From: Agromyces fucosus
GTDB lineage: Bacteria; Actinomycetota; Actinomycetes; Actinomycetales; Microbacteriaceae
Direction: 5' to 3'
NCBI RefSeq assembly: GCF_004134865.1
Contig: NZ_SDPO01000001.1
Location: forward strand, 744,001-808,000
DNA: 64,000 bases
The notes under the pieces were generated by a model, which ran no database searches, had not been told where the DNA came from, and worked only from the letters and a program-made list of their open reading frames with translations. Position numbers and translations under genes: made by a program. This document shows positions 40,998 to 62,709 of the stretch, in pieces (within the stretch, counting starts at the first letter, position 1; each line of letters opens with the position of its first letter).

Positions 40998-41030
40998 GCA
41001 GCCCCCGCGTCATCCTGCTGCGGGGGCTGC
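40998..41030 (-). terminator. Strong hairpin at the end of the transglutaminase-like gene
   Basis: GCAGCCCCCGC (40998-41008) and GCGGGGGCTGC (41020-41030) form a perfect 11-bp stem with an 11-nt loop. The loop contains most of the stop codon at 41010-41012. No T-run follows. It probably ends or attenuates the long transcript before the FHA gene. Confidence 0.6.
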
Positions 41031-45928: not shown

Positions 45929-48900
45929 TCACCACGTGTCGTACCTGATGTTGTTCCACTGGCTTCCGCTGATTCCGCCCAGCGTTCGCGACGTGCCGCC
46001 GCTGACGTTCTCGAATCGCACGGCGATCGTCTCGCCTGCCTGTCGGATGCCGAGGTGGTTCTGGAGCTGCAGTCGGCCGCTCGCACCGATGTCGATGGTC
46101 TGCTGGTAGCCGCAGCAGGCACCGCCGCTGATGGTCGCGAAGACCCTGTAGGTTCCCGGGTCCATGTTGGCCCACGTGATGCGCACCTCGGCGCATCCGC
46201 CGCCGCCCGACTGGCATCCCATGCTCGCACCCTTGCCGATCGAGCCCGAGGGCTGCGGGGGCGGCGGGTCGTTGACGACCACGGAATCGCTCGCGATCGG
46301 GCCGGGCTTGCCGCTGCCGTTGTTGACCGCCCTCACGTCGACGGTCCAGGTGCCGGCACCGGCGCCGCCTGACGAGGCAGACGTCGCGTTCGTGTTCTGC
46401 CAGTTGCCGTTGTTCAGTCGCCATTCATAGCGGATGGCGCCGCCGCCCGTGACGGATGGTGCGTTCCAGTCGATCGAGAGGGTCGTCGGTGCATCCCCGC
46501 CCGCTCGGATCGTGACGTTCCTGGGCGCGCTCGGCGTGCCGTAGGGCGTAACGGTCGGGCTCGGTGCCGACGAGGTGCTGCCGATGTCGTTCGTCGCGAT
46601 CACGGTGAAGGCGTATCCCTGGCCGTTGGTCAGGCCGGTGATCGTCTGGGGCGTTCCTGCTGCGCCTGCGCCGAAGGGCTTCTCACCCCCGGCCCACTTC
46701 ACCAGGTACCCGGTGATCGGGGAATTGTTCGACGCTGGAGCCCGCCAGGTCACCACGGCTGAGGCATCCCCGGCGGATGCCGACGGCGCGGCGGGCGCGT
46801 CCGGCGCGGCGCGCACGATCACCGTCACGCGGCCCTGCACCTCGCGAGCCGGATCCTTGGTGCCGTCCTGCACGCGATAGACGATACTCAGCGTGCCGGT
46901 GAACGTCGGGCCGGTCTTCGCAGTGATGCCCGTCGAGGTGAACGTCACGCTCGCCGAACTGCCGACCGAGGCCTGATCGATCTGCGCGTCGATGACTCGG
47001 AGCGGGGTTCCCTCGGCCTCGAAGGGGTTGAGGTCGTTGGCGAGCACGTCGATCGTCTTCGACTGGCTGCGCAGCATCTCGATCGGCCCGTCGTCCCGCG
47101 GCACGGCCTTAGGCCGGGAGGAGCTCACGACCTCGACGTCGATCGAGCCGGGCACCGAGAACTCCTTGTAGTCGACGGTGAAGGTCAACGTGGTCTTCGT
47201 GCCGGGCTGCACGCCGAGCGGCGAGCTCACTGTGAGCATCGAACCGCTGATGCCGGCGGAGAAGTCAGCGCTCTGACCGCTGAGCCCGTTGTACGAGAGC
47301 TCCTGCAGCACCTTGTCGCTCGGGTGCCCGCTCGACTGCCGCAGGTCGATCTCCTGGGGAGCCTCGCCTGCCTCGATCTTCATCGTGCGAGGAGTGAAGG
47401 TCGGCGGCACGTCCTCGAAGTTCGGGTCGCCGACGGTGACGGGGATCGTCAGGAACGCCTTGCGGCCCTTCGGATCGCTCGCGCTCTCGCCGTCGGTGAC
47501 CTCGAAGGTCACCGCGGATTGGCCGCGGAAGTCCTTGGCCGGCTTGTAGGTCAGCGTGGAGGCGTCGGTCATCGGCGACGAGCCGTCGCCGTTCGTCGAC
47601 GTCGCGGAGAGGATGCGTGCGGGCTTGCCGGACGGCACGATCACGATGTCGCCCACGCTCCACGAGATCGTGCCGTTCATCCGGACGATCTGCGGACCGA
47701 GCTCGGCGAGATATGGCGGGGGGAAGGTCTCTTCCTCCTCCTTCTTCTCCGCATCGTCGGGATCGGTACTCGGCGGCACGATGACGAACGCCATCGCCGT
47801 GAGCTCGTCGACCTCGTTCGTGAGCCGGTAGGCGATCGCCTGTCGCTTCGAGGTCGGCTTGACCTTGACGGTGCCGTCGGTCATGACCTCGGCGTTCTCG
47901 GAGTTCGGCCCCTCGACCGTTACCACGAGGTCCTCGACGAGCCCACCGGGGTTCTGGGCGTCCTTCAGCGGGTCGACCGTCACGGTGCTCTTGTCGGCCA
48001 CTTGCTTGGGCTCGATCACCTGGTCGCGCGCGGTCGGCGGCTCGATCTTCGCGTCTTCGGTCACGAGCACCTGGATGAATGCGCCATCGGCGCCGCCGTG
48101 GCCGTTCGTGATCTCGTAGCGCACCGAGTTGCCGCCCTCGGCGTCGGGTGCCTCGACGAGCACGCGGTTGTTCTTCACGCTCGCCGTAAGCCCTTCGCCC
48201 ACCTCGGGCAGCTTCTTCTGCACCTTGATCGGGTAGCCGCTCGGGTCGGAGTCGTTCGCGAGCACGTCGATCGCGGCCCGGCGACCCGGCCGCAGTTCGA
48301 CGACATCGTCGACCGCGTTCGGCGGCAGCGCCTCGGTGGGGCGCGGGATCACGCCGATGCGGATCGTGCCGGTCGCCGATTTGCCGGCGGTGTCGGCCAC
48401 CTCGTACGTGAAGGACTCGGTGCCGGCCGACCCCGCGTAGGCCTCGTAGCTGATGTGGGTGCTGCCGATGTCGACGATCTTGCCGAGCGAGGGCGGCGTG
48501 GTGATGCCGACGAGCGTCACCGAGTCGCCATCGGGATCGATGCCGTCGAGCGGCACGTCGATCTTGACCGCGGTGCCCTCGAACGTGCGGGAGGTCAGTG
48601 GCAGCGGCAACGGCGCGCGGTTGCCCTTCGCGTCGGGACCGACGACCGTGAAGCGCACGACGGCAGAGGCGGACTGCTCGTAGTCGTCGAAGATCTTGTA
48701 GGTGGCCGTGTAGACGCCGGGTTCACTCGGCGCCTGATAGCGCACGGTGTCGTCGGCGGTGAAGACGAGGCCGCCGGCTCCGCTGACGTCCACGAGCTCG
48801 GAATCGAGCGTGAGCGGCGCGGCATCGGGGTGGTAGTCGTTCTCGAGCACCGGCACGGTGACGATGTCGCCGGCGCGCACGGTCACCGCGTCATCGGTCG

Positions 48901-51244
48901 CGACCGGCGGCTGGTGCTTGACGAGCGGCGGCACGGGCACGACGGTGACCGTGCTCGTCGAACTCGCGATGCCGTCGGAGACGGTGTACTCGAACTGCAA
49001 CTGCTGGGTGATCGCCTCGGACGCCGTGATGCGCGCCACGGTGTTGTTCAGCACCTCGACCGAGAGCAGGTCGCCGGATGCCTCGGTGTCGACCGTCTGC
49101 ACCGCGAGCACGCGCCCGCTCGGCGAGACGTCATTGGTGAGCAGCGCGAGCGTCGTCGGCTCCCCTGGCCGAAGGTATGCCGTGTCCTTCACTGCGATCG
49201 GCGGCGGCGACTCCCCGGGAGGGTCCTTCACATCGACCCGGACGAGCCCCACGCTCGTCGCCGCACCGGCGCCGAGGTTGTAGATGAAGATGTGGGTGCC
49301 GACCTGGTCGGAGGAGAAGGCGATCGCCCCGCGGTCGAGGTTCGGCGTGATCGTCGCGGAGGTGGAGGCGTTCTCGACGCCGAGCAGCGCCAACGGCTCG
49401 CCTGACGGAGTCAGGTCGTTCACGAGAGGTTGGATCAGCGTGGTCTCGCCGGCGAACACCTCGGCGAAGTCGGGCGTGCCGACCGGGTTCAGGGCCCCGG
49501 GCTCCTTGACGTCGACCGTGAGCACCCCGGCAGTCGTGAGTGTGCCGTCGGAGACGACGTACTGCACCTCCTTCGTGCCGAGCTCGCCGGTCTTGTGCTC
49601 GAACGTGACGTAGCCGTCGGGTGCGAACCGCACCGAGTCGCCGCTCGTCGGCGAGGCGCTCACGAGGAAGACGTCATCGCCGTCGGGGTCGACCCAGTCG
49701 GCGAGCACGTTGTAGCCCATCGACTTGCCCTGCTCGACGCTGATCGCGCCAGACCGGATCGCGACCGGGGCGTTGTTCTCGGCCGTCGGCCGGATGGTGA
49801 GGTCGACGTGGGCCTGAGCCACGCCCAACCTGCCGTCGTCGGCGGTGTACTGGAACGAGACGGTCCCCGCGGCATCCGGCGAAGGAGTGAACTGCAGGGC
49901 GCGCCCGCCGTCGATGACCTCGAGACGGCCCGACTGCTCGGCGATCTCGCTGATGTTCGTCGCGGTGAGCACGTCGCCGTCGGGGTCGGTGTCGTTCTCG
50001 AGGATCTCGAGCACGGTGGTGCGGCCGGGCCGCACCCCGAACGTGTCGTCGCGCGCGGTCGGCGGCCGGTTCGTCTCGCTGCGCTCGGCGAGGGTGTCTT
50101 CGAACGTCTGCTGCGAGGCCTTCTCCTCGCCCTCTTCCGCGTCGCTCTCCTCGGGCGGAGTGACCTCGTCCCAGTTGTCGACGAGTCGCATGTTCGCGTC
50201 GACGAGCCAGACGTTGCCGTTCGTCAGGTTGTTGAGCGCGATGACGCTGCGATTGACCCGGAACTCGAGTCGTGAGCCCGTCGTGACCTGATCGATCGAC
50301 TGCACCTCGGGCTTCTGCCCGTCGCACGCGCTGACGTATCGACCGACGCCCGCCCACGCCCCGTGCGCGCACCCGTCGAGCCAGACGGGGCTCGCGACCG
50401 CTGCCGAATCGGCGGGTGCGTCGATGTCGGCGTCGATGACGTTCACGTCGCCGCCGGCGAGCGGCACTTGGAGCAGCGAGTCACCCGTCGCGAGCAGCAC
50501 TGAATCGTTCTCAGCGCCGACCTGCTGGATCTTGAGCGCCCGCTCGTCGAGTTCCCTCGCGGCGCCGTCGATGATGACCGCGTTCTGCTTCGTGTCGAGG
50601 ATGACGGGCTCGTCGCCGACGACGGAGAGCTGGTGCTCGCCGATCGCGGGCAGCGCGCTCGCCTCGGGCTCGGCACCGGGCTCGGCGATCTTCACGAGCT
50701 CGTCATGTTCGGGGGACGTGGCGTAGACCACCCCCTCCTTCGACACCGCGACGCGGGAGTCCGAGCCGAGCTGCGAGATCGGCTCGGTGTCGGCCGGGTT
50801 CAGCTGCAGCTCTCCGGCAGCACTCGTGACCCAGAGTTCCCCCTTCGGCGACAGGATTGCGAGCGTCTCGCCGCCGTGGGCGACCTCGGAACCGGGAGGG
50901 GCAGCGACACCCTGACCGAGGGTCGTGAAGGCGGGGTCGATGCGCTCGATCGAGCCGAGGCTCTTGTCATAGAGGAAGACGTCTTCGCCGTCCTGCAGCA
51001 CGTCGAACGCGTTCGAGGCGGTGTTCACGGCGGCGTCGAGCTCCTCGATCTGCCGGTTGAGACGACCCGCCAGCAGTTCCTTGCCGTTGGTCACCCACAC
51101 CTCGCGTGCGGCGAGGTCGACATCCGTGACGGGGAAGCCCTGATGGAGCACCGCGAAGGTCAGCGGAACCCCGGCGAGGAGCGTGATCGCGACGGTGGAG
51201 GCTGCGACCTTTCGCGCGCGCACCCACGACGTGAAGGCACCCAC
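45929..51244 (-). CDS. Giant membrane-anchored surface protein 1: propeller-like domain, Ig-like array, FN3, unique tip
   Basis: 1771 aa. A short basic N-terminus and one helix (VAASTVAITLLAGVPLTFAV) anchor it, so the chain projects outward. Residues about 45-385 look like a beta-propeller (REVWVTNGKELLAGRLNRQI). From about 390 to 1480 come about eleven Ig/cadherin-like (Big_9-type) domains with Ca-site motifs such as ENDTDPDGD, DWVDPDGDD and GIDPDGDSV; then two FN3 domains (about 1485-1660). The tip (about 1660-1771) is unique: GCQSGGGGC and GGACCGY, ending in RYDTW. No LPXTG motif. GTG 51244 has GGGGAG 6 nt upstream. Strongly similar to protein 2 except for the last FN3 and tip. Confidence 0.85.
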   Translation of the reverse strand: MGAFTSWVRARKVAASTVAITLLAGVPLTFAVLHQGFPVTDVDLAAREVWVTNGKELLAGRLNRQIEELDAAVNTASNAFDVLQDGEDVFLYDKSLGSIERIDPAFTTLGQGVAAPPGSEVAHGGETLAILSPKGELWVTSAAGELQLNPADTEPISQLGSDSRVAVSKEGVVYATSPEHDELVKIAEPGAEPEASALPAIGEHQLSVVGDEPVILDTKQNAVIIDGAARELDERALKIQQVGAENDSVLLATGDSLLQVPLAGGDVNVIDADIDAPADSAAVASPVWLDGCAHGAWAGVGRYVSACDGQKPEVQSIDQVTTGSRLEFRVNRSVIALNNLTNGNVWLVDANMRLVDNWDEVTPPEESDAEEGEEKASQQTFEDTLAERSETNRPPTARDDTFGVRPGRTTVLEILENDTDPDGDVLTATNISEIAEQSGRLEVIDGGRALQFTPSPDAAGTVSFQYTADDGRLGVAQAHVDLTIRPTAENNAPVAIRSGAISVEQGKSMGYNVLADWVDPDGDDVFLVSASPTSGDSVRFAPDGYVTFEHKTGELGTKEVQYVVSDGTLTTAGVLTVDVKEPGALNPVGTPDFAEVFAGETTLIQPLVNDLTPSGEPLALLGVENASTSATITPNLDRGAIAFSSDQVGTHIFIYNLGAGAATSVGLVRVDVKDPPGESPPPIAVKDTAYLRPGEPTTLALLTNDVSPSGRVLAVQTVDTEASGDLLSVEVLNNTVARITASEAITQQLQFEYTVSDGIASSTSTVTVVPVPPLVKHQPPVATDDAVTVRAGDIVTVPVLENDYHPDAAPLTLDSELVDVSGAGGLVFTADDTVRYQAPSEPGVYTATYKIFDDYEQSASAVVRFTVVGPDAKGNRAPLPLPLTSRTFEGTAVKIDVPLDGIDPDGDSVTLVGITTPPSLGKIVDIGSTHISYEAYAGSAGTESFTYEVADTAGKSATGTIRIGVIPRPTEALPPNAVDDVVELRPGRRAAIDVLANDSDPSGYPIKVQKKLPEVGEGLTASVKNNRVLVEAPDAEGGNSVRYEITNGHGGADGAFIQVLVTEDAKIEPPTARDQVIEPKQVADKSTVTVDPLKDAQNPGGLVEDLVVTVEGPNSENAEVMTDGTVKVKPTSKRQAIAYRLTNEVDELTAMAFVIVPPSTDPDDAEKKEEEETFPPPYLAELGPQIVRMNGTISWSVGDIVIVPSGKPARILSATSTNGDGSSPMTDASTLTYKPAKDFRGQSAVTFEVTDGESASDPKGRKAFLTIPVTVGDPNFEDVPPTFTPRTMKIEAGEAPQEIDLRQSSGHPSDKVLQELSYNGLSGQSADFSAGISGSMLTVSSPLGVQPGTKTTLTFTVDYKEFSVPGSIDVEVVSSSRPKAVPRDDGPIEMLRSQSKTIDVLANDLNPFEAEGTPLRVIDAQIDQASVGSSASVTFTSTGITAKTGPTFTGTLSIVYRVQDGTKDPAREVQGRVTVIVRAAPDAPAAPSASAGDASAVVTWRAPASNNSPITGYLVKWAGGEKPFGAGAAGTPQTITGLTNGQGYAFTVIATNDIGSTSSAPSPTVTPYGTPSAPRNVTIRAGGDAPTTLSIDWNAPSVTGGGAIRYEWRLNNGNWQNTNATSASSGGAGAGTWTVDVRAVNNGSGKPGPIASDSVVVNDPPPPQPSGSIGKGASMGCQSGGGGCAEVRITWANMDPGTYRVFATISGGACCGYQQTIDIGASGRLQLQNHLGIRQAGETIAVRFENVSGGTSRTLGGISGSQWNNIRYDTW
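50469..50578. repeat. 110-bp tract identical to 55870-55979 (copy in giant gene 1)
   Basis: Every base from 50469 to 50578 matches 55870-55979 in the paralogous gene, including third codon positions, while the flanking sequence differs every few codons. This looks like a gene-conversion tract. It lies in the propeller-like domain. Confidence 0.7.
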
Positions 51245-51312
51245 TCGTCACTCCCCTGATCGCGATTCGAAGCTCGACATGGCGTCGAAGCCGAACCCCC
51301 ACACCGGGGTAC

Positions 51313-51357
51313 ACGCTAACACGATCACTGGGCGCCGCGGCATGGGGAGGACTCCCC
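51313..51357 (-). promoter_or_regulatory. Promoter of giant gene 1 with upstream palindrome
   Basis: Read on the minus strand: palindrome GGGGAG-TC-CTCCCC (51344-51357), exactly 25 bp, then -10 box TAGCGT (51313-51318) and the conserved extension GTAC. The start codon lies about 62 nt beyond the expected transcription start. The same arrangement precedes giant gene 2, with the 25-bp spacer diverged in sequence. The palindrome lies just upstream of where -35 would be, an activator-type position. Confidence 0.6.
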
Positions 51358-51383
51358 ACGCAATCGCTCGCCTGCTGTACGCC

Positions 51384-54300
51384 CTATCCCCTGAAGTCCA
51401 CGTGATTGCTCTCATGGCCGCCCACTGTCACGTAGGCGTCCGACCACCCGCAGTAGCCGCTCGACGCAGCCCAACTCCCACGGAAGGAGCCCCTGCCGTC
51501 GGCACCGATCGACATCGTCATCGTGCGGAAGGGACCGTTGCAGTACGTCTGGAGCGTCTGGGTCGTGTTCGGCGGGAACCACTCGACATCGACGTTGTAG
51601 TAGAAGCCGCCGCTTTGGGGGGTGCCCCGGGACAACGTCACCTTGGGTGCCGGTTGCGTGGCGGTCGCCGTGTCGGAGAGCGTCCACTCGCCGCAACCGC
51701 CTGCGTTGCAGGCCTGGACCTTGAAGTTGTGCGCATACCCGATGCCGGCGTTTCCCGGCGCGCTCAGCCCCGACGTCGAGCCCGACTTCGTGCTGTTCAG
51801 CACGAACTGCCAGTTGTACGAGGTGATCGGGCTGCCGTTGGCCGACGCAGCGCCCCACGTCAGCCTGATCTCGCCGGAACCGTCGCTCGAGGCCCAGAGG
51901 TCCGCCCACGGCGGAGCGCTGGGCTTGCCGAACGGGATGACCGGATCGCTCGCGGCCGAGGCCTGCGAAGTGCCGGTGTCGTTCGTCGCCGTCACGGTGA
52001 ACTTGTAGCTCGTGCCGTTCGAGAGGCCGGTGATGGTCTGCGCGCTGCCGGCAGCCGATGCACCGAACGAGTCGCTTCCGCCGGCCCAGCTGACGGTGTA
52101 CCCCGTGATGGGATCGTTGTTGCTCGCGGGAGCGTTCCAACGCACGGTCGCCGACTGGTCGCCAACGGTCGCCGTCGGCTTGCCCGGCGCATCGGGCGGA
52201 GCACGCACGATGACGGTGGCCCGACCGGCGACCTCACGGGTCGGATCCTTCGTGCCGTCCTGCACGCGATACACGACGCTCAGAGTGCCCGTGAACGTCG
52301 GCCCGGTCGTCACGGAGATGTCGGTCGCCGTGAAGCTGACGCTCGCGGCCGAACCCACCGATTGCTGATCGATCTCCGCCTCGATGATGCGAAGCGGCGT
52401 GCCTTCGGCAGCGAACGGGTTGATGTCGTTGGCGAGCACGTTGATCTTCTTCGTCTGCGAGCGCAGCATCTCGACCGGCCCGTCGTTACGCGCCTGCGCC
52501 TCCGGCCGCGACGAGGTCACGACCTCGACCTCGATCGACCCGGGAACCGAGAACTCCTTGTAGTCGACCGTGAACGTGAGCGTCGTCGTCGAGCCCGGCT
52601 GCACGCCGAGGGGTGCGCCGACCGTCAGGTTCGACCCGCTGATGCTCGCCGTGAAGTCGGCGTTCTGCCCCTCGAGTCCGTTGTACGTGAGCTCCTGCAG
52701 CACCTTGTCGCTCGGGTGCCCGCTCGACTGGCGGAGATCGACCGTCTGCGGCTTCTCCCCCGCCTCGAGCTTGATGCTGCGCGGGGTGAAGGTGGGCGGC
52801 GCGTCCTCGAAGTTCGGGTCGCCGACCGTGACGGGGATCGTCAGGAACGCCTTCTTCCCCTTCGGATCATCCGCGCTCTCGCCGTCGGTCACCTCGAAGG
52901 TCACCGTCGCCTGACCGCGGAAGTCCTTCGCCGGCTTGAACGTGAGCGTCGACGCATCCGTCATCGGTGACGACCCGTCGCTGTTCGATGCCGTCGCGGA
53001 GAGGATGCGGGCAGGCTTGCCCGACGGCACGATCACGATGTCGCCGACGTTCCACGAGATCGTGCCGTTCATGCGCACGATCTGCGGACCGAGTTCAGCG
53101 AGGTACGGCGGGGGGAAGGTCTTCTCCTCTTCCTCGTCATCCTTCTTCTCCGCCTCGTCGGGGTCGACCTTCGGCGGCACGATGACGAACGCCATCGCCG
53201 TGAGCTCGTCGACCTCGTTCGTGAGTCGATAGGCGATCGCCTGGCGCTTCGAGGTGGGCCGCACCTTCAGGGTGCCGTCGGTCATCACCTCGGCATTGTC
53301 CGCGTTCGGTCCCTCGACCGAGACCACGAGGTCCTCGACGAGCCCGCCGGGATTCTGCGCGTCCTTGAGCGGGTCCACCGTGACGGAGTTCTCGTCGGCG
53401 ACCTGCTTCGGCTCGATCACCTGGTCGTGCGCCGTCGGCGGCTCGATCTTCGCGTCCTTCGCGACGAGCACCTGGATGAACGCGCCGTCGGCGCCGCCAT
53501 GCCCGTTCGTGATCTCGTAGCGGACCGAATTGCCGCCCTCGAAGTCGGGAGCCTCGACGAGCACGCGGTTGTTCTTCACGCTCGCGGTGAGGCCTTCGCC
53601 GACCTCGGGCAGTTTCTTCTGCACCTTGATGGGGTAACCGCTCGGGTCGGAGTCGTTCGCGAGCACGTCGATCGCCGCCCGGCGACCGGGGCGAAGCTCG
53701 ACGACGTCGTCGACGGCGTTCGGGGGAAGCGCCTCGGTGGGTCGCGGGATGACGCCGATGCGGATGGTGCCCGTGGCCGTCTTGCCGGCCGTGTCGGCGA
53801 CCTCGTACGTGAACGATTCCGTGCCGGCGGATCCTGCGAACGCCTCGTAGCTGAGGCTCGTGCTGCCGTTCTCGATGACGCGACCGAGGGATGGCGGGGT
53901 CGTGATGCCGACGAGCGTGACGGAGTCGCCGTCGGGATCGATGCCGTCGAGCGGCACGTCGATCTCCACCGCCGTGCCCTCGAAGGTGCGCGAGGTGAGC
54001 GGCAGGGGCAGCGGTGGCCGGTTCGACTTCGCGTCGGGGCCGACGACCGTGAAGCGCACCGTCGCGGTCGCCGTCTGCTCGAAGTCGTCGAGCACTCGGT
54101 AGGCGACGGTGTACACGCCGGGCTCCTGCGGCGCCTGATACCGCACCGTGTCGTCGGCGACGAACACGAGCCCACCGGCGGCCGAGACGTCCACGAGCTC
54201 GCGATCGAGCGTGAGCGGCGCAGCATCCGGGTGGTAGTCGTTCTCGAGGACGGACGCCGTCGCGATGTCGCCGGCGCGCACCGTCACCGCGTCATCGACC

Positions 54301-56645
54301 GCGACCGGTGGCTGATGCTTCACGAGCGGCGGCACGGGCACCACCGTGACGGTGCTCGTCGAACTGGCGAGGCCGTCGGAGACCGTGTACGCGAACTGCA
54401 ACTGCTCGGTGATCGCCTCCGACGCCGTGATGCGGGTCACCGTGTTGTTCAGCACCTCGACCGAGAGCAGGTCGCCGGATGCCTCGGTGTCGACCGTCTG
54501 CACTGCGAGCACGCGCCCGCTCGGGGACACGTCGTTGGCGAGCACCGAGAGCGTCGTCGGCTCACCGGGACGCAGATAGGCGGTGTCCTTCACCGCGATC
54601 GGCGGCGGCGACTCCCCCGGCACCTCTTTCACGTCGACCCGGATGAGCCCGACGCTCGTCGCGGCACCCGCGCCGAGGTTGTAGAGGAAGATGTGGCTGC
54701 CGACCTGATCGGACGTGAAGGTGATCGCGCCGCGTTCGAGGTTCGGCGTCACGGATGCGCTGCTCGGCGCATCCTCGACGCCGAGCAGCGCCAGCGGCTC
54801 GCCGGATGGGCTGAGGTCGTTGACGAGAGGCTGGATCAGCGTGGTCTCGCCGACGAAGACCTCGGCGAAGTCGGGCGTGCCGACCGGGTTCAGCGCTCCC
54901 GGCTCCGTGACCTCGACGGTGAGGATGCCGGTCGAGGTGACCATGCCGTCGGAGACGACGAACTGCACCTCCTTCGTGCCGAGCTCGCCCGTCTTGTGTT
55001 CGAAGGTGACGAAGCCGTCGGGCGCGAACCGCACCGAGTCGCCGCTCGTCGGCGACGCGCTCACGAGGAAGACATCGTCGCCGTCGGGGTCGAGCCAGTC
55101 GCTGAGCACGTTGTAGCCCATCGACTTGCCCAGCTCGACGCTGATGGCGCCGTCACGCACCGCGACCGGCGCCGAGTTCTCGGCCGTCGGTCGGATGGTC
55201 AGGTCGACGCTGGCCTGAGCGACGCCAAGACGACCATCGTCGGCGGTGTACTGGAACGAGACCGTTCCGGACGCGCCGAAAGCCGGGGTGAACTGCAGTG
55301 CGCGGCCGCCGTCGATCAGTTCGAGGCGGCCGGACTGCTCGGCGATCTCGCTGACATTCGTCACGGTGAGCACGTCGCCGTCGGGATCGGTGTCGTTCTC
55401 GAGGACCTCGAGGAGCGTCGTGCGCTCAGGGCGGACGCCCAGTGCATCATCGCGAGCGGTCGGCGGCCGGTTGGTCTCACTTCGTTCCGCCAGGGTGTCC
55501 TCGAAGGTCTGCTTCGAAGCCTTCTCGTCACCCTCTTCGGCGTCGCTCTCGTCGGGCGGCGTCACTTCGTCCCAGTTGTCGACGAGCCGGAGGTTCGAGT
55601 CGACGAGCCAGACGTCGCCGTTCGACAGGTTGTTCAGGGCGATGACGCTGCGATTCACCCGGAACTCGAGTCGCGAACCCTTCGTGACCTGATCGATCGT
55701 CTGCAGCGAGGGCTCCACGCCGTCGCACGCATTGAGGTATCGGCCGACCGAGGCCCACGCGCCGTGCGCGCATCCGTCGAGCCAGACCGGGCTCGCGACC
55801 TCGCCGGCCGCGGCCGGCGCATCGACGTCGGCGTCGATGACCTTCACGTCGCCGCCGGCGAGCGGCACCTGGAGCAGCGAGTCACCCGTCGCGAGCAGCA
55901 CTGAATCGTTCTCAGCGCCGACCTGCTGGATCTTGAGCGCCCGCTCGTCGAGTTCCCTCGCGGCGCCGTCGATGATGACGGCGTTCTCCTCGGTGTCCAG
56001 CACCACCGGCTCGTCGCCGACGACCGAGAGCTGGTGCTCGCCGAACGCGGGCAGCGCGCTGACCTCGGGCTCGGCGCCCGGCAACGCGATCGTCACGAGT
56101 TCGTCGTCTGCTGCGGAACTCGCGAAGACCACGCCGGCTTTCGACACCGCCAGGTGCGAACCCGCGCCGAGGCTCACGGTCGGCTCGGTGTCGGCCGGAT
56201 TCAGCTGCAGCTCACCGGCCGCACTCGTGACCCAGAGCTCACCCTTCGGCGAGAGGATCGCGAGCGTCTCGCCGCCATGGGCGACCTCGGAACCCGGAGG
56301 GGCCGCGACACCCTGGCCGAGGGTCGTGAAGGCGGGGTCGATGCGCTCGATCGAGCCGAGGCTCTCGTCGTAGAGGAAGACGTCCTCGCCGTCCTGCAGC
56401 ACGTCGAACGCGTTCGACGCCGTGTTCACCGCGGCATCGAGCTCCTCGATCTGGCGGTTGAGACGACCCGCCAGCAGTTCCTTGCCATTGGTCACCCACA
56501 CCTCGCGTGCGGCCAGGTCGACATCCGTGACGGGGAAGCCCTGGTGGAGCACCGCGAACGTCAGCGGAACACCCGCGAGGAGCGTGATCGCGACGGTGGA
56601 GGCTGCGACCTTCCGCCCGCGCACCCACGACGTGAAGGCACCCAC
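51384..56645 (-). CDS. Giant membrane-anchored surface protein 2: same scaffold, different tip
   Basis: 1753 aa, the close paralogue of protein 1: same N-terminal anchor, propeller-like region (45-385), eleven Ig/cadherin-like domains (390-1490) and two FN3 domains. From about residue 1665 it diverges completely: the tip contains TYCNGPFRTMTMS and SSGYCGWSDAYVTVGGHES, with two cysteines. An extra acidic linker EAEKKDDEEEEKTFPP sits between Ig-like domains 8 and 9. GTG 56645. The gene ends 139 nt before giant gene 1; the gap holds that gene's promoter. Confidence 0.85.
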   Translation of the reverse strand: MGAFTSWVRGRKVAASTVAITLLAGVPLTFAVLHQGFPVTDVDLAAREVWVTNGKELLAGRLNRQIEELDAAVNTASNAFDVLQDGEDVFLYDESLGSIERIDPAFTTLGQGVAAPPGSEVAHGGETLAILSPKGELWVTSAAGELQLNPADTEPTVSLGAGSHLAVSKAGVVFASSAADDELVTIALPGAEPEVSALPAFGEHQLSVVGDEPVVLDTEENAVIIDGAARELDERALKIQQVGAENDSVLLATGDSLLQVPLAGGDVKVIDADVDAPAAAGEVASPVWLDGCAHGAWASVGRYLNACDGVEPSLQTIDQVTKGSRLEFRVNRSVIALNNLSNGDVWLVDSNLRLVDNWDEVTPPDESDAEEGDEKASKQTFEDTLAERSETNRPPTARDDALGVRPERTTLLEVLENDTDPDGDVLTVTNVSEIAEQSGRLELIDGGRALQFTPAFGASGTVSFQYTADDGRLGVAQASVDLTIRPTAENSAPVAVRDGAISVELGKSMGYNVLSDWLDPDGDDVFLVSASPTSGDSVRFAPDGFVTFEHKTGELGTKEVQFVVSDGMVTSTGILTVEVTEPGALNPVGTPDFAEVFVGETTLIQPLVNDLSPSGEPLALLGVEDAPSSASVTPNLERGAITFTSDQVGSHIFLYNLGAGAATSVGLIRVDVKEVPGESPPPIAVKDTAYLRPGEPTTLSVLANDVSPSGRVLAVQTVDTEASGDLLSVEVLNNTVTRITASEAITEQLQFAYTVSDGLASSTSTVTVVPVPPLVKHQPPVAVDDAVTVRAGDIATASVLENDYHPDAAPLTLDRELVDVSAAGGLVFVADDTVRYQAPQEPGVYTVAYRVLDDFEQTATATVRFTVVGPDAKSNRPPLPLPLTSRTFEGTAVEIDVPLDGIDPDGDSVTLVGITTPPSLGRVIENGSTSLSYEAFAGSAGTESFTYEVADTAGKTATGTIRIGVIPRPTEALPPNAVDDVVELRPGRRAAIDVLANDSDPSGYPIKVQKKLPEVGEGLTASVKNNRVLVEAPDFEGGNSVRYEITNGHGGADGAFIQVLVAKDAKIEPPTAHDQVIEPKQVADENSVTVDPLKDAQNPGGLVEDLVVSVEGPNADNAEVMTDGTLKVRPTSKRQAIAYRLTNEVDELTAMAFVIVPPKVDPDEAEKKDDEEEEKTFPPPYLAELGPQIVRMNGTISWNVGDIVIVPSGKPARILSATASNSDGSSPMTDASTLTFKPAKDFRGQATVTFEVTDGESADDPKGKKAFLTIPVTVGDPNFEDAPPTFTPRSIKLEAGEKPQTVDLRQSSGHPSDKVLQELTYNGLEGQNADFTASISGSNLTVGAPLGVQPGSTTTLTFTVDYKEFSVPGSIEVEVVTSSRPEAQARNDGPVEMLRSQTKKINVLANDINPFAAEGTPLRIIEAEIDQQSVGSAASVSFTATDISVTTGPTFTGTLSVVYRVQDGTKDPTREVAGRATVIVRAPPDAPGKPTATVGDQSATVRWNAPASNNDPITGYTVSWAGGSDSFGASAAGSAQTITGLSNGTSYKFTVTATNDTGTSQASAASDPVIPFGKPSAPPWADLWASSDGSGEIRLTWGAASANGSPITSYNWQFVLNSTKSGSTSGLSAPGNAGIGYAHNFKVQACNAGGCGEWTLSDTATATQPAPKVTLSRGTPQSGGFYYNVDVEWFPPNTTQTLQTYCNGPFRTMTMSIGADGRGSFRGSWAASSGYCGWSDAYVTVGGHESNHVDFRG
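55870..55979. repeat. 110-bp tract identical to 50469-50578 (copy in giant gene 2)
   Basis: The second member of the identical pair described for giant gene 1. The two copies are 5401 bp apart in direct orientation, so homologous recombination between them could delete one giant gene or swap tips. Confidence 0.7.
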
Positions 56646-56709
56646 TCGTCACACCTCTGCTCTGCTCGACCCCGGATCGGAGCCGAGCCAGACCCCCGCA
56701 CCGGCGTAC

Positions 56710-56754
56710 ACGGTAACACGCGGGCCGCGAACGTCGACATGGGGAGGACTCCCC
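56710..56754 (-). promoter_or_regulatory. Promoter of giant gene 2 with upstream palindrome
   Basis: Palindrome GGGGAG-TC-CTCCCC (56741-56754 on the minus strand), 25 bp, then -10 box TACCGT (56710-56715) and GTAC. The palindrome is base-for-base the same as before giant gene 1, including the following ATG triplet. Giant gene 3 lacks this element because its start overlaps the preceding gene. Confidence 0.6.
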
Positions 56755-56794
56755 GCTCGGCACCGTGCGCGGCACCGAGGCGAAGGGTCGGTGC

Positions 56795-59700
56795 TCAGCA
56801 ATCCGGCACGGTGCGTGCGCCACGGTTCGTATGCGCGGCGAGCACGAACCATCCGTTGTAGACGCCGCTCGCCTGCGCCATGTAGAAGTAGCTCTCGCCC
56901 CAGCGCTGCGACCGGCAGACGGCGTCGATGACCGTGCCGGCCGGGATCATGCCGGCGGAGTTCATCGTGCACCCCCGCTCGGCGTTCGTCGGCGGGTTCG
57001 TGTACGTCGAGTCGGGTTCCGGGCAGGTGCTCTGCGTCACCGTGGTGCCGTTGGCCGGCACCCACGGCGCGGTCGGCGTCGCCGTGCCCGACATGGCGCG
57101 GGGGCCGCAGCCGGCGACGTTGCACGCCGCGACGAAGTATCGAGAGCCCGCCCCGTTCGCGCCGGTGGCCGTCGCCGCCGTACCGGTCGCCGTGCCCGAT
57201 CCCCCCGGTGTGCCCTCGAACGTCCATTCGTATCGCGTGATGCCGCGACCGCCGTTGTCGGACGGAGGCGCCCAACTGAGCGAGAGTCGCGCGTCTCCTG
57301 AAGCCGAGGCGACGAGGTTCGCGCTCGCAGGCGCTCCCGGCAGGCCGAACGGCGTTCCGGAGGCACTCGACGGCGAGGCGCCTGACGTGCCGATGCCGTT
57401 CGTCGCCTCGACCTGGAACCGATAGGCCGTGCCGTTCGCGAGTCCCGAGATGGTGTGCGCAATCCCTGCGGCGTCGGCGGCGAAGTCGGCGCTGCCGCCG
57501 TTCCACGAGAGGCGATATCCCGAGATCGCCGAGTTGTTGTCGGGTGGAGCCGACCATCGGACGCTCACCGACCCGTTCTGCTCCGAGACGATGAGGGGCG
57601 CCTTCGGCACGTCGGGCCGGTCGCGAACCGTCACCATGACCCGGCCCTGCGTCTCGCGCGCGGCATCCTTCGTGGCATCCTGGACGCGGTAGATCACGCT
57701 GAGCGTTCCCGTGAACGAGGCACCGGTCCGTACCGTGATCCCCGTCGCCGTGTGCGACACCGCTGCGCTCGACCCGACGTCGGTCTGGTCGATCTCCGCG
57801 CCGATGACCCGCAGTGCAGTGCCGGGGAACGGATTGACGTCGTTGGCGAGCACGTCGAAGGTCGCCGAGTCGCTTCGCAGCATCTCGAACGGCCCGTCGT
57901 CGAGCGCCTGGGGCTTCGCGCGGGTCGACGACACGACCGTGACGTCGACGTGGCCGGGCACCGTGAACTCGCCGAGCACGACGTCGAACGAGAGTCGCGT
58001 CGTCGTTCCCGTCGGGACGCCGAGCGGAGCCGAGACGGTCAGGATGCCGCCGGCCGCCGTCGCCGCGATGTCGGCCGTGGCCCCTCGGAGGTTCGTGTAG
58101 TCGACCCGCGCGAGCATCTCCGGGTTCGGGTGGGAGGTCGATGACCGCAGATCGAGCGAAAGCGGCGCCTCGCCGGCCTCGATGGTCTCGGCTCGCGGTG
58201 TGAACACGGGTGGCGTGTCGGCGAACTCGGGGTCACCGACGAACACCGGGATGGTGAGGAACACGCTGCGTCGATCACCGGATCTCGCGTCGGCCCGATC
58301 GGTGACCTCGAAGGTGACCGACGCCTCGCCCCGGTAGTCGCGCTTCGGCACGTACTGCAGCGTCTGCTCGTCGACGAACGACGGCTCCGCCCAATTCGTG
58401 CTCGTCGCGCTCAGGGCGCGCGCCGGACGACCCGACGGTGCGATGACGATGTCCGGGATCTCCCACGAAATCCGCCCGTTCATGGGTACGACGATGCGGC
58501 CGAGATCGGCGAGGTACGGGTCCGCGGCATCCTCACCGGCTGCAGGAACCACGATGAACGCCATGGCATCGAGTTCGTCGAGCTCATTCGTCAGCCGGAA
58601 CGCGACCGCGAATCGGCGCGAGCTCGGCCGCACCTCGATGCTGCCGTTGTCGAGCACCGTGGCGCGATCGGCGTTCGGTCCCTCGACTCGCACCGCGAGC
58701 TCGTCGACGAGGCCGCCCGGATTCGAGGCATCGCGCAGGGGGTCGACCAGCACCGCCTCGTCGCCCACGACCTCGGTCGGCTCGATCACCTGGTCGGACG
58801 CGGTCGGCGGCAGGATCACGGCATCGCGCTTGACGAGGATCTGCACGAACGCGGTATCGGCCCCGCCCCGGCCGTTGGACACCTCGTAGCGAAGCGTGAA
58901 CGCGCCCTCCCGGTCGGGAGCCGTGACGACCACGCGACGGCGATCGCGGATCTCGGCCTCGATGGCGTCGTCGACCTGCGGCAGGTCGACCACGCTGAGG
59001 GCGCGCCCGCTCGGATCGGAGTCGTTCAGGAGCACCTCGACCGATGCACGGCGACCCGGCCTCATCTCGATCGCGTCGTCGACCGCGTTCGGCGGCGGCG
59101 AGGTCTCGGGCGGTGGGATCACGCCGATCCGGATCGAACCGGTCGCCCGTTCGCCGAGCGCGTCGTGCACCTCGTAGGTGATCGTGTCGGTACCGCTGGA
59201 GCCGGCGAACGCCTCGTAGGTGATCGACGTGCTCGTCTGGCCGGCGACCCGCCCGAGCATCGCCCCGCCGAGCACTCCCGTCAGCGCGAGCGAGTCGCCA
59301 TCGGGGTCGAGCCCGTCGAGCGGGATGTCGATCGTTACCGCGGAGCCGGCGAACGTGCGCGAGGTGAGGGGCGGCAACGTCGGCGCCGTGTTGCCGCCGT
59401 CGTCGCGTGCGACGACGGTGAAGCCGATGCTCGCGCGAGCCGTCTGCTCGAAGTCGTCGGCGACCGTGTACACCGCGGTGTAGGTCCCCGGTTCGTCGGG
59501 GGCCTGGAACCGCACACGCGAGCGGTCGACGAAGGCGACGCCGCCGCCGAGCACGGGCGAGGCCAGCTCCGGCAGCACATGCATCGCCGCGGCATCCGGG
59601 TGGTAGTCGTTCTCGAGGACCGCCACCGTCGCGATGTCGCCGGCGCGAACCTTCACGACGTCGTCGAGCGCGACGGGCGGCTGGTGCTTCACGAGCGGCG

Positions 59701-62020
59701 GCACGGGAACGATAGTCACCGTGGCACTCGAGACGCCGGTGCCGTCGGAGATGGTGTACCGCAGTTGCAACTGGCGATCGAGCGCCTCGGTCGCGGTGAT
59801 CCGCAGGGCGGTGTTCGTCAGCACCTCGACCGAGACGAGGCCGTCGATCCCGGCGGTGTCGACGGACTGCACCGCGAGCACCCGGCCCGACGGGGAGACG
59901 TCGTTCGCCAGCACCGGTACGGTGGTCGGCTCCCCCGGTCGCAGGTAGGCGATATCGACGACGGCGATGGGCGGCGGGTCCTCCGCCGGTCGCTCGACGA
60001 TGCGCACGCGGATGAGGCCGACGCTGACGGATGCCCCTGCGCCGAGGTCGTAGAGCACGGTGAAGTCGCCCGGCTCGGGTGACGAGAACGCGATCGTCCC
60101 CCGCTCGAGATCGGTCGTGGCGGTGAGCGCACCAGGGGTCTCCTCGAGGCCGAGCAGGGCCAGCGGTGCCCCCGACGGGCTGAGGTCGTTCACCAGCGGC
60201 TCGAGCATGACGGGCTCGCCGGCGAAACCCTGCGCGAAGTCCGGCGTGCCGACGGGGTTGAGCGCTCCGACGGCCTGCACGTCGACCGTCAGCGTGCCGG
60301 CAGCCGACGTCTGGCCGTCGGAGACCGTGTACGCGACCTCCTTCAGCCCGAGCTCGCCGCTCCGATGCTCGAAGGCGACGTGCCCGTCGGGACTGAACCG
60401 CACGGCGTCGCCGCCAGTGGGCGATGCGTTCACGAGGAACACGTCGTCGCCGTCGGGATCGGTCCAGTCGGCCAGGACGTTGTAGCCGATCTGCTGGCCC
60501 TGTTCGACGCCGACGGCTGCTTCCCGCGCCGCCGAAGGCGCCGTGTTCTCGCCGATCGGGACGATCCGGACGTTCACCGCCGCCTCGGCGACGCCCGAGC
60601 GCCCATCGTCGACGGCGTAGCGGAACGACACCGTTCCTGCTGCGTCGGCGGCGGGCGTGAACTGGAGCGCGCGGCCGTCGTCGATCACCTCCAGCCTCCC
60701 GAGGGACGCCGCGACGTCGGACACAGAACCGATCGTGAGCACGTCGCCGTCGGGATCGGTGTCGTTCTGGAGCACCTCGAGCAACGTCGTGCGGTCGGGC
60801 CGCACGCCGAGTTCGTCGTCGCGCGCCGTCGGCGGACGATTGGATTCGGTCCGTTCCGCGAGCGTGTCCTCGAACACCTGCTGGGCGCTCTTCTCGTCGC
60901 CCTCGAGCTCATCGGACTCCTCGGGCGGCGTGACCTCCTCCCAGTTGTCCACGAGCCGGAGGTTCGCATCGACGAGCCACGCGTTGCCCGAGGTCAGGTC
61001 GTTCAGTGCGACCACGTCGCGATTCACGCGGAATTCGAGTCGGGCGCCGAGCGTCGATGGCTCGATCCGCGACTGCAGCGGCTTCGACGCATCGCACAGC
61101 GAGAGGTAGGACGCCGAGTTCGCCCACGCCGCGTGCACGCACCCGTCGACGAACACGGGTGCGGCGACCTCGTCGCCCGACTGAGCAGGCGCCGACGCCG
61201 CGGCATCCGCGTCGAACTCTCGCACCGTCCCTCCGGCCAACGGCACCTCGAACAGCGAAGCGGCACCCGCGACGTACGCCGACTCGTGCCCCGCTCCGGA
61301 CTGCTGCAAGCGCAGGCCATCACCCGGCAGCTCGATCTCGCGCCCGTCGACGAGCAGCACGTCGCGGTCGGTGTCGAGGATGACGGCGTGCTCGCCGACC
61401 ACGGCCAACTGATGCGCACCGAGCTCCGGCAGCTCTGTGGAGAGCGTCGCGCCCCCGTCGCCGTCGAGCCGGTGCAACTCGCGCGCACCGGGCTCCGACA
61501 CGAAGGTCGCGCCGTCGACTCCGACCGCGAGCTCGGCATCGGCCCCCACCTCGAGTACCGGCTTCGTCGCGCCGGCGTCGAATGACAGCTCGCCGCCGGC
61601 GGGGATCGTCCAGACCTCGCCACGCGGCGACAGCACCGCGAGCACCTCGCCGCCGTACGCCACTCGCGAGCCGATCGGCACCTCGACGCGCTCCGTCAGC
61701 GTGGTGAAGGCAGGGTCGATGCGCTCGATCGAGCCGGCGTCGCGATCGTAGAGGAAGACGTCGGCGCCGTCTTGGAGCACGTCGGTGCTGTTCGACTGGG
61801 TGGCGACGGCCGCATCGAGTTCCTCGATCTGCCGGTTGAGCCTGCCGGCGAGGAGATCGTCGCCATTGGTGACCCAGACCTCGCGGGCCCGCAGGTCGGG
61901 GTCCGTGACGGGGAATCCGCGGTGCAGGGCCGCGACCGTGACCCCGCCCACCGCCATGAGCGACAGCACGACCACCGACGCGAGACCCCTGCGCGCCCGG
62001 AACGACGGGAAGCGCCTCAC
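56795..62020 (-). CDS. Giant membrane-anchored surface protein 3: diverged scaffold, SH3b-like cysteine tip
   Basis: 1741 aa, clearly homologous to proteins 1 and 2 along the whole scaffold but more distant (for example EVWVTNGDDLLAGRLNRQIEE is shared in substance while most loops differ). Anchor helix GLASVVVLSLMAVGGVTVAAL; propeller-like domain to about 380; Ig-like array; FN3 domains from about 1473; tip from about 1653 with four Cys (STCPEP, ERGCTM, DAVCRS, VPDC). The tip segment GTVIDAVCRS...YNGWFVLAAHT resembles a bacterial SH3 fold. The start is GTG 62020, overlapping the FHA/HTH gene stop (GTGA), so expression is coupled to the regulator genes. Confidence 0.83.
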   Translation of the reverse strand: MRRFPSFRARRGLASVVVLSLMAVGGVTVAALHRGFPVTDPDLRAREVWVTNGDDLLAGRLNRQIEELDAAVATQSNSTDVLQDGADVFLYDRDAGSIERIDPAFTTLTERVEVPIGSRVAYGGEVLAVLSPRGEVWTIPAGGELSFDAGATKPVLEVGADAELAVGVDGATFVSEPGARELHRLDGDGGATLSTELPELGAHQLAVVGEHAVILDTDRDVLLVDGREIELPGDGLRLQQSGAGHESAYVAGAASLFEVPLAGGTVREFDADAAASAPAQSGDEVAAPVFVDGCVHAAWANSASYLSLCDASKPLQSRIEPSTLGARLEFRVNRDVVALNDLTSGNAWLVDANLRLVDNWEEVTPPEESDELEGDEKSAQQVFEDTLAERTESNRPPTARDDELGVRPDRTTLLEVLQNDTDPDGDVLTIGSVSDVAASLGRLEVIDDGRALQFTPAADAAGTVSFRYAVDDGRSGVAEAAVNVRIVPIGENTAPSAAREAAVGVEQGQQIGYNVLADWTDPDGDDVFLVNASPTGGDAVRFSPDGHVAFEHRSGELGLKEVAYTVSDGQTSAAGTLTVDVQAVGALNPVGTPDFAQGFAGEPVMLEPLVNDLSPSGAPLALLGLEETPGALTATTDLERGTIAFSSPEPGDFTVLYDLGAGASVSVGLIRVRIVERPAEDPPPIAVVDIAYLRPGEPTTVPVLANDVSPSGRVLAVQSVDTAGIDGLVSVEVLTNTALRITATEALDRQLQLRYTISDGTGVSSATVTIVPVPPLVKHQPPVALDDVVKVRAGDIATVAVLENDYHPDAAAMHVLPELASPVLGGGVAFVDRSRVRFQAPDEPGTYTAVYTVADDFEQTARASIGFTVVARDDGGNTAPTLPPLTSRTFAGSAVTIDIPLDGLDPDGDSLALTGVLGGAMLGRVAGQTSTSITYEAFAGSSGTDTITYEVHDALGERATGSIRIGVIPPPETSPPPNAVDDAIEMRPGRRASVEVLLNDSDPSGRALSVVDLPQVDDAIEAEIRDRRRVVVTAPDREGAFTLRYEVSNGRGGADTAFVQILVKRDAVILPPTASDQVIEPTEVVGDEAVLVDPLRDASNPGGLVDELAVRVEGPNADRATVLDNGSIEVRPSSRRFAVAFRLTNELDELDAMAFIVVPAAGEDAADPYLADLGRIVVPMNGRISWEIPDIVIAPSGRPARALSATSTNWAEPSFVDEQTLQYVPKRDYRGEASVTFEVTDRADARSGDRRSVFLTIPVFVGDPEFADTPPVFTPRAETIEAGEAPLSLDLRSSTSHPNPEMLARVDYTNLRGATADIAATAAGGILTVSAPLGVPTGTTTRLSFDVVLGEFTVPGHVDVTVVSSTRAKPQALDDGPFEMLRSDSATFDVLANDVNPFPGTALRVIGAEIDQTDVGSSAAVSHTATGITVRTGASFTGTLSVIYRVQDATKDAARETQGRVMVTVRDRPDVPKAPLIVSEQNGSVSVRWSAPPDNNSAISGYRLSWNGGSADFAADAAGIAHTISGLANGTAYRFQVEATNGIGTSGASPSSASGTPFGLPGAPASANLVASASGDARLSLSWAPPSDNGGRGITRYEWTFEGTPGGSGTATGTAATATGANGAGSRYFVAACNVAGCGPRAMSGTATPTAPWVPANGTTVTQSTCPEPDSTYTNPPTNAERGCTMNSAGMIPAGTVIDAVCRSQRWGESYFYMAQASGVYNGWFVLAAHTNRGARTVPDC

Positions 62021-62709
62021 TCGGTCGCCGCGTCGAGCAACGGCAGGTCGTCGATGCTCACGAGGCGTGTCGCGACCGCGTACTCCACGAGTCGAGCGCG
62101 ACGGTTCGTCGCCAGCTTGCCCCGGCCGCCGCGCAGACCGTCGACGCCGATGCGGTCGAGCTTCTCGCAGACGTTGTCGAGCTTGCGGTTGAAGGTCGTC
62201 ATGCTCCAGCCCAGACGGGCCGCGGCCTCGGCCGAGCTCGGCACGAGCGCCCGCCCGCCGGCCGGCTGCGCGAGGACGTTCTCGGCCAGCGAGACCACGA
62301 GCAGGCGCTGGCTGGAGGTGAGCGTCACCGGCAGGATCGTCGTGCCGCCATCGGTGGGGGCAGCGGTGAGGGAGGTGTTGTAGAAGTCCTCTTCGGCGTG
62401 CACCGTGAAGTCGTAGGTCGTCGCACCGGCGCTGAACATCACGTGCACGGTCTGGAAGACGAGCGGGAGCTTCGCGCCCGGCGCGAGCCACGCCTGCACG
62501 CTGCCCGTCGCGTCGGAGATCGTCGCGGAGAGGATCTGCCCGACGTTGGAGAGCCACCACAGCCCGTACTCCGACGACAGCGTGAGGAACGTCCGGTGCA
62601 GGTAGGGGTTGTCGTCGATCGTGAGGTCGGACTCCCGACCGATGGTGAACGGCTCGCCGACCTCGACGGTGTACGACTCACCGCAGTATTCGACGCGGAG
62701 CGGCCTCAC
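62017..62709 (-). CDS. FHA-like domain fused to a DNA-binding-like domain
   Basis: A 230-aa cytoplasmic protein. Residues about 5-115 resemble an FHA beta-sandwich: EPFTIGRESDLTIDDNPYLHRTFLTL has the Gly-Arg-Glu and Asn-Pro-x-x-His pattern. Residues about 130-225 are helical with LTSSQRLLVVSLAENV, SAEAAARLGWSMTTFNRKLDNV and LATNRRARLVEYA, looking like a winged-helix/LuxR-type DNA-binding region. It lies between the kinase gene (GTGA overlap) and giant gene 3 (GTGA overlap), so it may be a phospho-regulated transcription factor for the cluster. That role is inference; the FHA match is partial. Confidence 0.7.
   Translation of the reverse strand: MRPLRVEYCGESYTVEVGEPFTIGRESDLTIDDNPYLHRTFLTLSSEYGLWWLSNVGQILSATISDATGSVQAWLAPGAKLPLVFQTVHVMFSAGATTYDFTVHAEEDFYNTSLTAAPTDGGTTILPVTLTSSQRLLVVSLAENVLAQPAGGRALVPSSAEAAARLGWSMTTFNRKLDNVCEKLDRIGVDGLRGGRGKLATNRRARLVEYAVATRLVSIDDLPLLDAATE

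What the first reader, a model, noticed from the sequence alone, without database searches (positions are those of the whole stretch)
45929..62020. Three tandem giant surface proteins share one scaffold but carry unrelated C-terminal tips
The three genes encode 1741-1771-residue proteins with the same order: N-terminal membrane anchor, propeller-like domain, about eleven Ig/cadherin-like domains with DPDGD-type calcium motifs, and two FN3 domains. Similarity stops near residue 1650-1665 in all three, and each ends in a different cysteine-containing module of about 90-110 residues. With an N-terminal anchor the tip is the most distal part, so this looks like fibres with interchangeable heads (adhesion, receptor or sensing diversity). 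Domain boundaries are read by eye.
Basis: partly seen in the sequence, partly recalled or inferred. Interest (0 to 1): 0.85.

Follow-up and report, generated by a model that had tools for sequence, protein, structure and literature searches.

The report
Giant surface fibres with swapped heads
A soil bacterium of the genus Agromyces carries three neighbouring genes for giant cell-surface proteins with the same long stalk but different ends, and comparison with related species suggests that this end piece is exchanged like a cassette while the stalk and the neighbouring genes stay put.

Summary
Three tandem minus-strand genes encode 1741-1771 aa proteins with one scaffold: N-terminal anchor, Ig/cadherin-like repeats, two FN3 domains and a ~90-110 aa head. 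They lie in a complete PFNA-type operon (PP2C, FHA, Ser/Thr kinase, a regulator-like gene, fn3 x3, MoxR, DUF58, transglutaminase), described in print as exclusive to bifidobacteria. Corrections: similarity already falls in the second FN3 domain, and the Ig1 and Ig2 heads are distant relatives; only the Ig3 head is unrelated. Head interchange between species is nevertheless well supported. On a tree of 83 scaffolds head class changes 35 times (shuffled 46). Head distance barely follows scaffold distance (r 0.17; segments of residues 40-1468: 0.76-0.90). Species pairs with 93-95% identical scaffolds carry heads 22-27% identical, and DNA identity is back above 0.9 from 100 nt past the stop codon. 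A paralogous operon in 24 Agromyces genomes shows no such decoupling. Unexpectedly, the promoter dyad ahead of Ig1 and Ig2 recurs in Agromyces ahead of type VII secretion (WXG100) and toxin/immunity-type genes. What the heads bind, the mechanism of exchange and the type VII link are inferred, not shown.

The parts
45929..51244 (-). fn3 gene Ig1 (1771 aa), class A head; next to moxR
51384..56645 (-). fn3 gene Ig2 (1753 aa), class B head
56795..62020 (-). fn3 gene Ig3 (1741 aa), class C head; its GTG start overlaps the stop codon of the gene before it (GTGA)
45932..46264 (-). Ig1 head with linker, 111 aa, predicted beta sandwich
51387..51653 (-). Ig2 head with linker, 89 aa, distant relative of the Ig1 head
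56798..57070 (-). Ig3 head, 91 aa, unrelated to the other two; fold not identified
46265..46546 (-). second FN3 domain of Ig1
51654..51935 (-). second FN3 domain of Ig2
57071..57352 (-). second FN3 domain of Ig3
44917..45885 (-). MoxR-type AAA ATPase
43553..44920 (-). DUF58 protein (start approximate)
41010..43556 (-). membrane transglutaminase-like protein
62017..62705 (-). regulator-like protein called FHA-like/HTH here by eye; no Pfam family at cut-off (best HTH_8, E 0.055); start not determined
62706..64000 (-). Ser/Thr kinase with one outer domain (565 aa; runs past the window end, whole in L006:707-2404); FHA and PP2C genes follow outside the window
51344..51357 (-). promoter dyad GGGGAGTCCTCCCC ahead of Ig1
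56741..56754 (-). promoter dyad GGGGAGTCCTCCCC ahead of Ig2

Best explanation
These are cell-surface fibres of a PFNA-type signalling and assembly operon whose C-terminal head (alone, or with the second FN3 domain) is an exchangeable cassette. SHOWN by sequence: heads fall into recurring classes; the class differs between closely related species, while scaffold, MoxR, DUF58 and the DNA past the stop codon stay alike. INFERRED: replacement is by homologous recombination, with the scaffold as 5' arm and the region from the stop codon into moxR as 3' arm, from incoming DNA or through a tandem-copy intermediate like the one in this window, where recombination between two scaffolds joins one 5' part to another head. 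INFERRED: the protein is N-anchored, so the head is distal and is the binding end; kinase, phosphatase and FHA proteins control it and MoxR/DUF58/transglutaminase help to assemble or fix it. The head decides which ligand or partner is bound.
For: 83 scaffolds: 35 class changes, shuffled 46.4 +- 1.9. Distance profile of 54 rows: r 0.76-0.90 for segments of residues 40-1468, 0.41 FN3-1, 0.50 FN3-2, 0.17 head. 51 genomes: head r 0.11-0.20 with scaffold, DUF58, MoxR, kinase and the regulator-like gene, which have r 0.46-0.85 among themselves. Seven species pairs: DNA identity 0.38-0.64 over the last 300 nt, 0.91-0.98 at 100-200 nt past the stop. The Ig1 head is 88% identical to that of G043 although the scaffolds are 65% identical, while G007, with a scaffold 90% identical to G043 over residues 1-1283, has a class B head. 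The paralogous operon's C-terminus does not decouple. Class A profile: 24 of 24 matches in 150 family genomes sit beside the scaffold.
Against: Some phylogenetic signal remains: 35 is below all 300 shuffles (smallest 39); for the 56-row set 20 against 24.1 +- 1.7, smallest 19. No recent transfer between distant scaffolds was caught: in the 25 pairs shown, third positions of shared codons agree in 0.46-0.66 for heads and 0.50-0.60 for scaffolds. FN3-1 is also partly decoupled. No strains of one species were compared. No other head copy was found in the own genome. Binding by the head and the surface topology are untested.
Confidence: 0.7

Rival explanations
1. Birth and death of tandem paralogues: ancestors held several fn3 copies with different heads, gene conversion kept scaffolds alike within a genome, and lineages lost different copies, so no head moved between genomes.
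For: The window holds A, B and C heads side by side; Ig1 groups with the class A gene of A. subbeticus and Ig2, less surely, with class B genes of G018 and G037; the first 120 residues of Ig1 and Ig2 are 98% identical; 11 other Agromyces genomes have two intact or usable copies in the stretches read.
Against: 40 of the 52 other Agromyces genomes with this operon show one copy, and many classes would have had to coexist again and again. Heads of class A are alike on scaffolds that are only 57-65% identical.
Confidence: 0.2
2. Fast sequence divergence of the head under positive selection, without exchange, as proposed for the PFNA genes of bifidobacteria (PMC6803598, abstract and passages).
For: That paper reports episodic positive selection and found no recombination in the trimmed alignments of 43 species and subspecies.
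Against: Heads recur as classes on distant scaffolds, and identity recovers past the stop codon. Continuous drift would not give these patterns.
Confidence: 0.06
3. The heads are cytokine-binding modules, as claimed for FN3 of Bifidobacterium longum.
For: Same operon layout, and two FN3 domains followed by a C-terminal domain (PMC8430577 and PMC10688814, abstracts and passages).
Against: The operon occurs in Agromyces, Cryobacterium, Glaciibacter, Leifsonia, Okibacterium, Lacisediminihabitans and Amnibacterium, mostly environmental genera (recalled), so an animal cytokine is an unlikely general ligand.
Confidence: 0.03

Closest known systems
PFNA operon of Bifidobacterium (pkb2, fn3, aaa-atp, duf58, tgm; in some species prpC and fha)
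   Same: The five core genes in the same order and direction, a PP2C and an FHA gene beside them, and a membrane-anchored fn3 product with two FN3 domains and a C-terminal domain.
   Different: Agromyces has up to three fn3 genes in tandem, an extra regulator-like gene before them and exchanged heads; the bifidobacterial study found no recombination in trimmed alignments, and in the passages seen it is the Pkb2 outer region that is called highly variable, whereas here the kinase outer domain looks like one conserved module.
Polymorphic toxins with exchanged C-termini (CdiA-CT, Rhs; recalled)
   Same: Conserved long N-terminal part, C-terminal module replaced as a cassette.
   Different: No immunity gene follows the head; moxR or the next fn3 gene follows directly, and the heads look like binding domains (beta sandwich for class A), not known toxins.
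Mycobacterial moxR1 operon
   Same: MoxR next to a DUF58 gene; a review notes the resemblance to PFNA (PMC12067865, passages).
   Different: The passages seen name no giant fn3 fibre and no exchanged head there.

Membership tests
PFNA operon | kinase, fn3, MoxR, DUF58 and transglutaminase genes in this order on one strand | tested here: met
   Own genome. Relatives. A regulator-like gene lies between kinase and fn3.
PFNA operon | fn3 product with N-terminal membrane segment, two FN3 domains and a C-terminal domain | tested here: met
PFNA operon | optional prpC (PP2C) and fha genes | tested here: met
   PP2C_2 E 1.1e-10 and FHA E 6.7e-8 beside the kinase
PFNA operon | sequence relationship to a named bifidobacterial fn3 protein | tested here: inconclusive
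   Three genomes of an unnamed family (f4) have kinase, fn3, MoxR and DUF58 in order, one with the transglutaminase in the stretch read; their names are not known.
PFNA operon | cytokine binding by the fn3 protein (claimed for B. longum) | not testable with these tools
   needs protein work
polymorphic toxin with exchanged C-terminus | C-terminal toxin followed by an immunity gene | tested here: not met
   No Pfam match for the three heads at E up to 10; moxR or fn3 follows
type VII secretion regulon (dyad) | same dyad ahead of fn3 and of WXG100 genes | tested here: met
   WXG100 by Pfam
type VII secretion regulon (dyad) | one regulator binds these sites and the fibre acts with secretion | not testable with these tools
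   only a shared DNA element was seen
diversity-generating retroelement target | template repeat and reverse transcriptase nearby | not tested
   no search was made

The most novel reading that the evidence does not exclude
The swapped-head fibre is the recognition arm of a type VII secretion, contact-dependent interaction system: one dyad-binding regulator switches on the fibre, WXG100 proteins, Tdi1-like immunity genes and lipoproteins, and exchange of heads changes which neighbouring cells are contacted.
Probability: 0.25. Interest if true: 0.92.

Novelty: new variant of a known kind. Interest (0 to 1): 0.76.

Why it matters
The operon has been read as a bifidobacterial device for sensing human cytokines. 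Finding it intact across Agromyces, Cryobacterium and other Microbacteriaceae, with a head that is replaced as a cassette, implies an older and more general job in recognising variable partners, and makes that testable by asking what each head class binds. The shared promoter dyad is a concrete lead on when the fibre is made and ties it to type VII secretion and toxin/immunity-type genes.

Tried and rejected
Silent head cassettes in the own genome: none found with the FN3-2 plus head profiles; two weaker places on contig C3 lie in other genes with FN3-like segments. Covariation of the kinase outer domain with head class: not pursued, because by eye that domain is one conserved FN3-like module in the Agromyces loci read. 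Heads on other proteins: the class A profile matched 23 of 150 family genomes, 24 places, each beside the scaffold; the class C profile matched 1 of 150, the own genome (few Agromyces were drawn); class B was not searched in this way. PDB sequence searches: best E 0.91 for the Ig3 head and 0.029 for the Ig1 head, an engineered protein. Pfam on whole FN3-2 plus head pieces gave fn3-type and Ig-type families; where in each member they lie was not resolved. Rfam on 40000-64000: none. The first paralogue control used wrong frames for four rows and was replaced. Before trimming the linker, class A against FN3-2 gave 6.1% and A against B 97.7%; class B against D is weak after trimming (29.7%).

Rows dropped: one search gave 129 matching frames; one search skipped three and merged duplicates to 94; one search left out nine rows (paralogous-operon and order-level loci) and kept 85 heads; the tree used 83 (without L116 and L136), the full alignment 82 (also without L068), the distance profile 54 and the operon comparison 51.

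Full report
WHAT IS THERE. The window is part of a 4.0 Mb, six-contig genome whose genus group contains records named Agromyces. Three minus-strand genes at 45929-51244, 51384-56645 and 56795-62020 encode proteins of 1771, 1753 and 1741 aa. In 60-column blocks up to column 1380, Ig1 and Ig2 are 78-100% identical (mean 88%), Ig1 and Ig3 38-75% (mean 60%). Each has one hydrophobic segment near the N-terminus, no LPxTG motif and four DPDGD-type motifs, Big_9 repeats and one FN3 domain above the Pfam cut-off. The second FN3 domain is seen by profile comparison and structure prediction. The propeller claim could not be tested.

CORRECTIONS. Similarity is lost earlier than stated: between Ig1 and Ig2 it falls from 88% (residues 1-1283) to 64% in FN3-1, 24% in FN3-2 and 20% in the head. 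The heads are not three unrelated modules. Profiles of the Ig1 type (class A) and the Ig2 type (class B), with the proline-rich linker removed, align at 96.0% probability, E 4e-9, over 62 columns, while each head type against seven control domains gives at most 3.4%. The Ig3 type (class C) matches neither. The Ig1 head is predicted with high confidence as a beta sandwich (mean pLDDT 93.9 for FN3-2 plus head); the Ig3 piece less surely (81.2, with a stretch below 50 in the head).

THE OPERON. All on the minus strand lie PP2C, FHA, Ser/Thr kinase, a regulator-like gene (FHA-like/HTH by eye only), the three fn3 genes, MoxR, DUF58 and a transglutaminase. [quoted passage not shown] abstracts and passages seen). 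PMC10688814 states that it is found only in bifidobacteria. Here the main fn3 gene is present in 52 of 59 other Agromyces genomes (counting matches with E below 1e-190), and the operon in named records of Cryobacterium, Glaciibacter, Leifsonia, Okibacterium, Amnibacterium and Lacisediminihabitans. Forty of the 52 show one copy, eleven two in tandem (one of these shortened), one a second copy after the transglutaminase gene; the own genome is the only one with three. Three genomes of an unnamed family (f4) have kinase, fn3, MoxR and DUF58 in that order, one of them with the transglutaminase inside the stretch read; whether they are bifidobacteria is not known.

HEAD EXCHANGE. I collected 85 distinct heads: class A 32, B 21, C 11, D 6, E 3, F 2, G 2 and eight singletons. 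On a tree of 83 scaffolds (FastTree) the class changes 35 times; shuffled labels give 46.4 +- 1.9, smallest 39, so some phylogenetic signal remains. For the 56 rows from G-numbered genomes without class C (one of them from a neighbouring genus) the number is 20, shuffled 24.1 +- 1.7, smallest 19, minimum possible 5. Of 28 two-row clades of that tree 12 join different classes (counted by hand). Over 54 Agromyces rows the distance in each ~100-aa segment from residue 40 to 1468 follows the rest of the scaffold (r 0.76-0.90); residues 1-39 (0.47), FN3-1 (0.41) and FN3-2 (0.50) do so less, and the head hardly (0.17). Over 51 genomes the head has r 0.11-0.20 with scaffold, DUF58, MoxR, kinase and the regulator-like gene, which have r 0.46-0.85 among themselves. 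A. lapidis (G013) and A. italicus (G029) have scaffolds 95% identical (residues 1-1283) and heads 27% identical; C. cryoconiti and C. breve 94%, with FN3-2 at 93% and heads at 22%. At DNA level, in seven between-species pairs with different heads, identity is 0.38-0.64 in the last three 100-nt bins, 0.41-0.91 in the three bins before (high only in the Cryobacterium pair and in parts of one other), 0.59-0.95 in the first 100 nt after the stop and 0.91-0.98 in the next 100 nt, inside moxR. A conserved left arm, an exchanged end and a conserved right arm are what cassette replacement predicts.

CONTROL. The same genome has a second, paralogous operon (G000:C4, L069). In 24 Agromyces genomes (23 of which also have the main operon) the C-terminal segment of its fn3 keeps r 0.69 and 63% mean identity, the lowest r of 19 segments but close to the others (0.71-0.87); the C-terminus looks the same in 23 of 24 rows, by eye. 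So the decoupling belongs to the main operon's head, not to giant proteins or to the method.

LIMITS. Third positions of shared codons are hardly more alike in shared heads than in scaffolds (0.46-0.66 against 0.50-0.60 in the 25 pairs shown), so no recent transfer between distant lineages was caught. Classes come from single linkage at 45% identity. No two strains of one species could be compared. Loss of different tandem copies could explain part of the pattern; the window, with A, B and C heads side by side, may show the intermediate.

PROMOTER DYAD. Ahead of Ig1 and Ig2, about 100 nt from the start, lies GGGGAGTCCTCCCC, found at exactly these two places in the own genome. GGGGA-N4-TCCCC occurs in 37 of 79 regions upstream of fn3 genes (mononucleotide shuffles: mean 0.15, largest 2), followed by a -10-like box seen by eye; the ten Agromyces class C copies whose upstream regions were read, Ig3 among them, lack it. 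TGGGGA-N4-TCCCCAT occurs in 42 of 60 Agromyces genomes, the reversed control in none of the 60. I read 53 loci around such sites: 3 of the own genome, 30 chosen by the tool and 20 chosen by me to avoid fn3 sites. Of 55 distinct sites in them 23 precede relatives of four WXG100 query proteins, 7 other proteins of ESX size, 10 relatives of a T6SS_Tdi1-type protein, 5 lipoproteins, 5 fn3, 1 moxR, 1 a DUF2510 protein, 1 a TNT-domain protein and 2 nothing recognised. The queries came from some of these sites, so the grouping is partly circular. The independent support is Pfam: all four WXG100 query types score above the WXG100 cut-off, as do the Tdi1-type, DUF2510 and TNT proteins; the ESX-size proteins do not. 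That the fibre belongs to a type VII regulon is an inference from a shared element.

LITERATURE. Searches combining Agromyces or Microbacteriaceae with FN3, Ig-like or type VII terms, and type VII with FN3 and MoxR, found no paper. PFNA terms found 11 listed papers, of which I saw passages of four; I also saw passages of PMC7159879 on MoxR-vWA conflict systems, a different arrangement without DUF58. The library holds open-licence papers only, so absence from it is weak evidence.

SCORING. Interest 0.76: the exchange is clear and the type VII lead surprising, but no function is shown. New variant of a known kind: a PFNA-type operon with exchangeable heads.

Noticed in passing
window 51344-51357 and 56741-56754; L211, L213, L215, L217-L266: A promoter dyad shared by fn3 genes and WXG100, Tdi1-type immunity, lipoprotein and TNT-domain genes across Agromyces: a possible type VII secretion regulon.
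   Followed up: partly
L069 (G000:C4:216000-232000): A second, paralogous PFNA-type operon (FHA, PP2C, kinase, fn3, MoxR, DUF58, transglutaminase) with a conserved fn3 C-terminus, also in other Agromyces genomes.
   Followed up: yes
window 50885-51244 and 56286-56645: The first 120 residues of Ig1 and Ig2 are 98% identical, more than most of the scaffold, which may reflect gene conversion between the copies.
   Followed up: no
L086 (G029), L068 (G006), L136 (Pseudolysinimonas kribbensis): fn3 copies that are shortened or split into two frames: the upstream copy in G029, and the genes in G006 and L136. Described only.
   Followed up: no
L084 (G019): A further fn3 copy lies after the transglutaminase gene instead of in tandem, and has its own dyad.
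   Followed up: no
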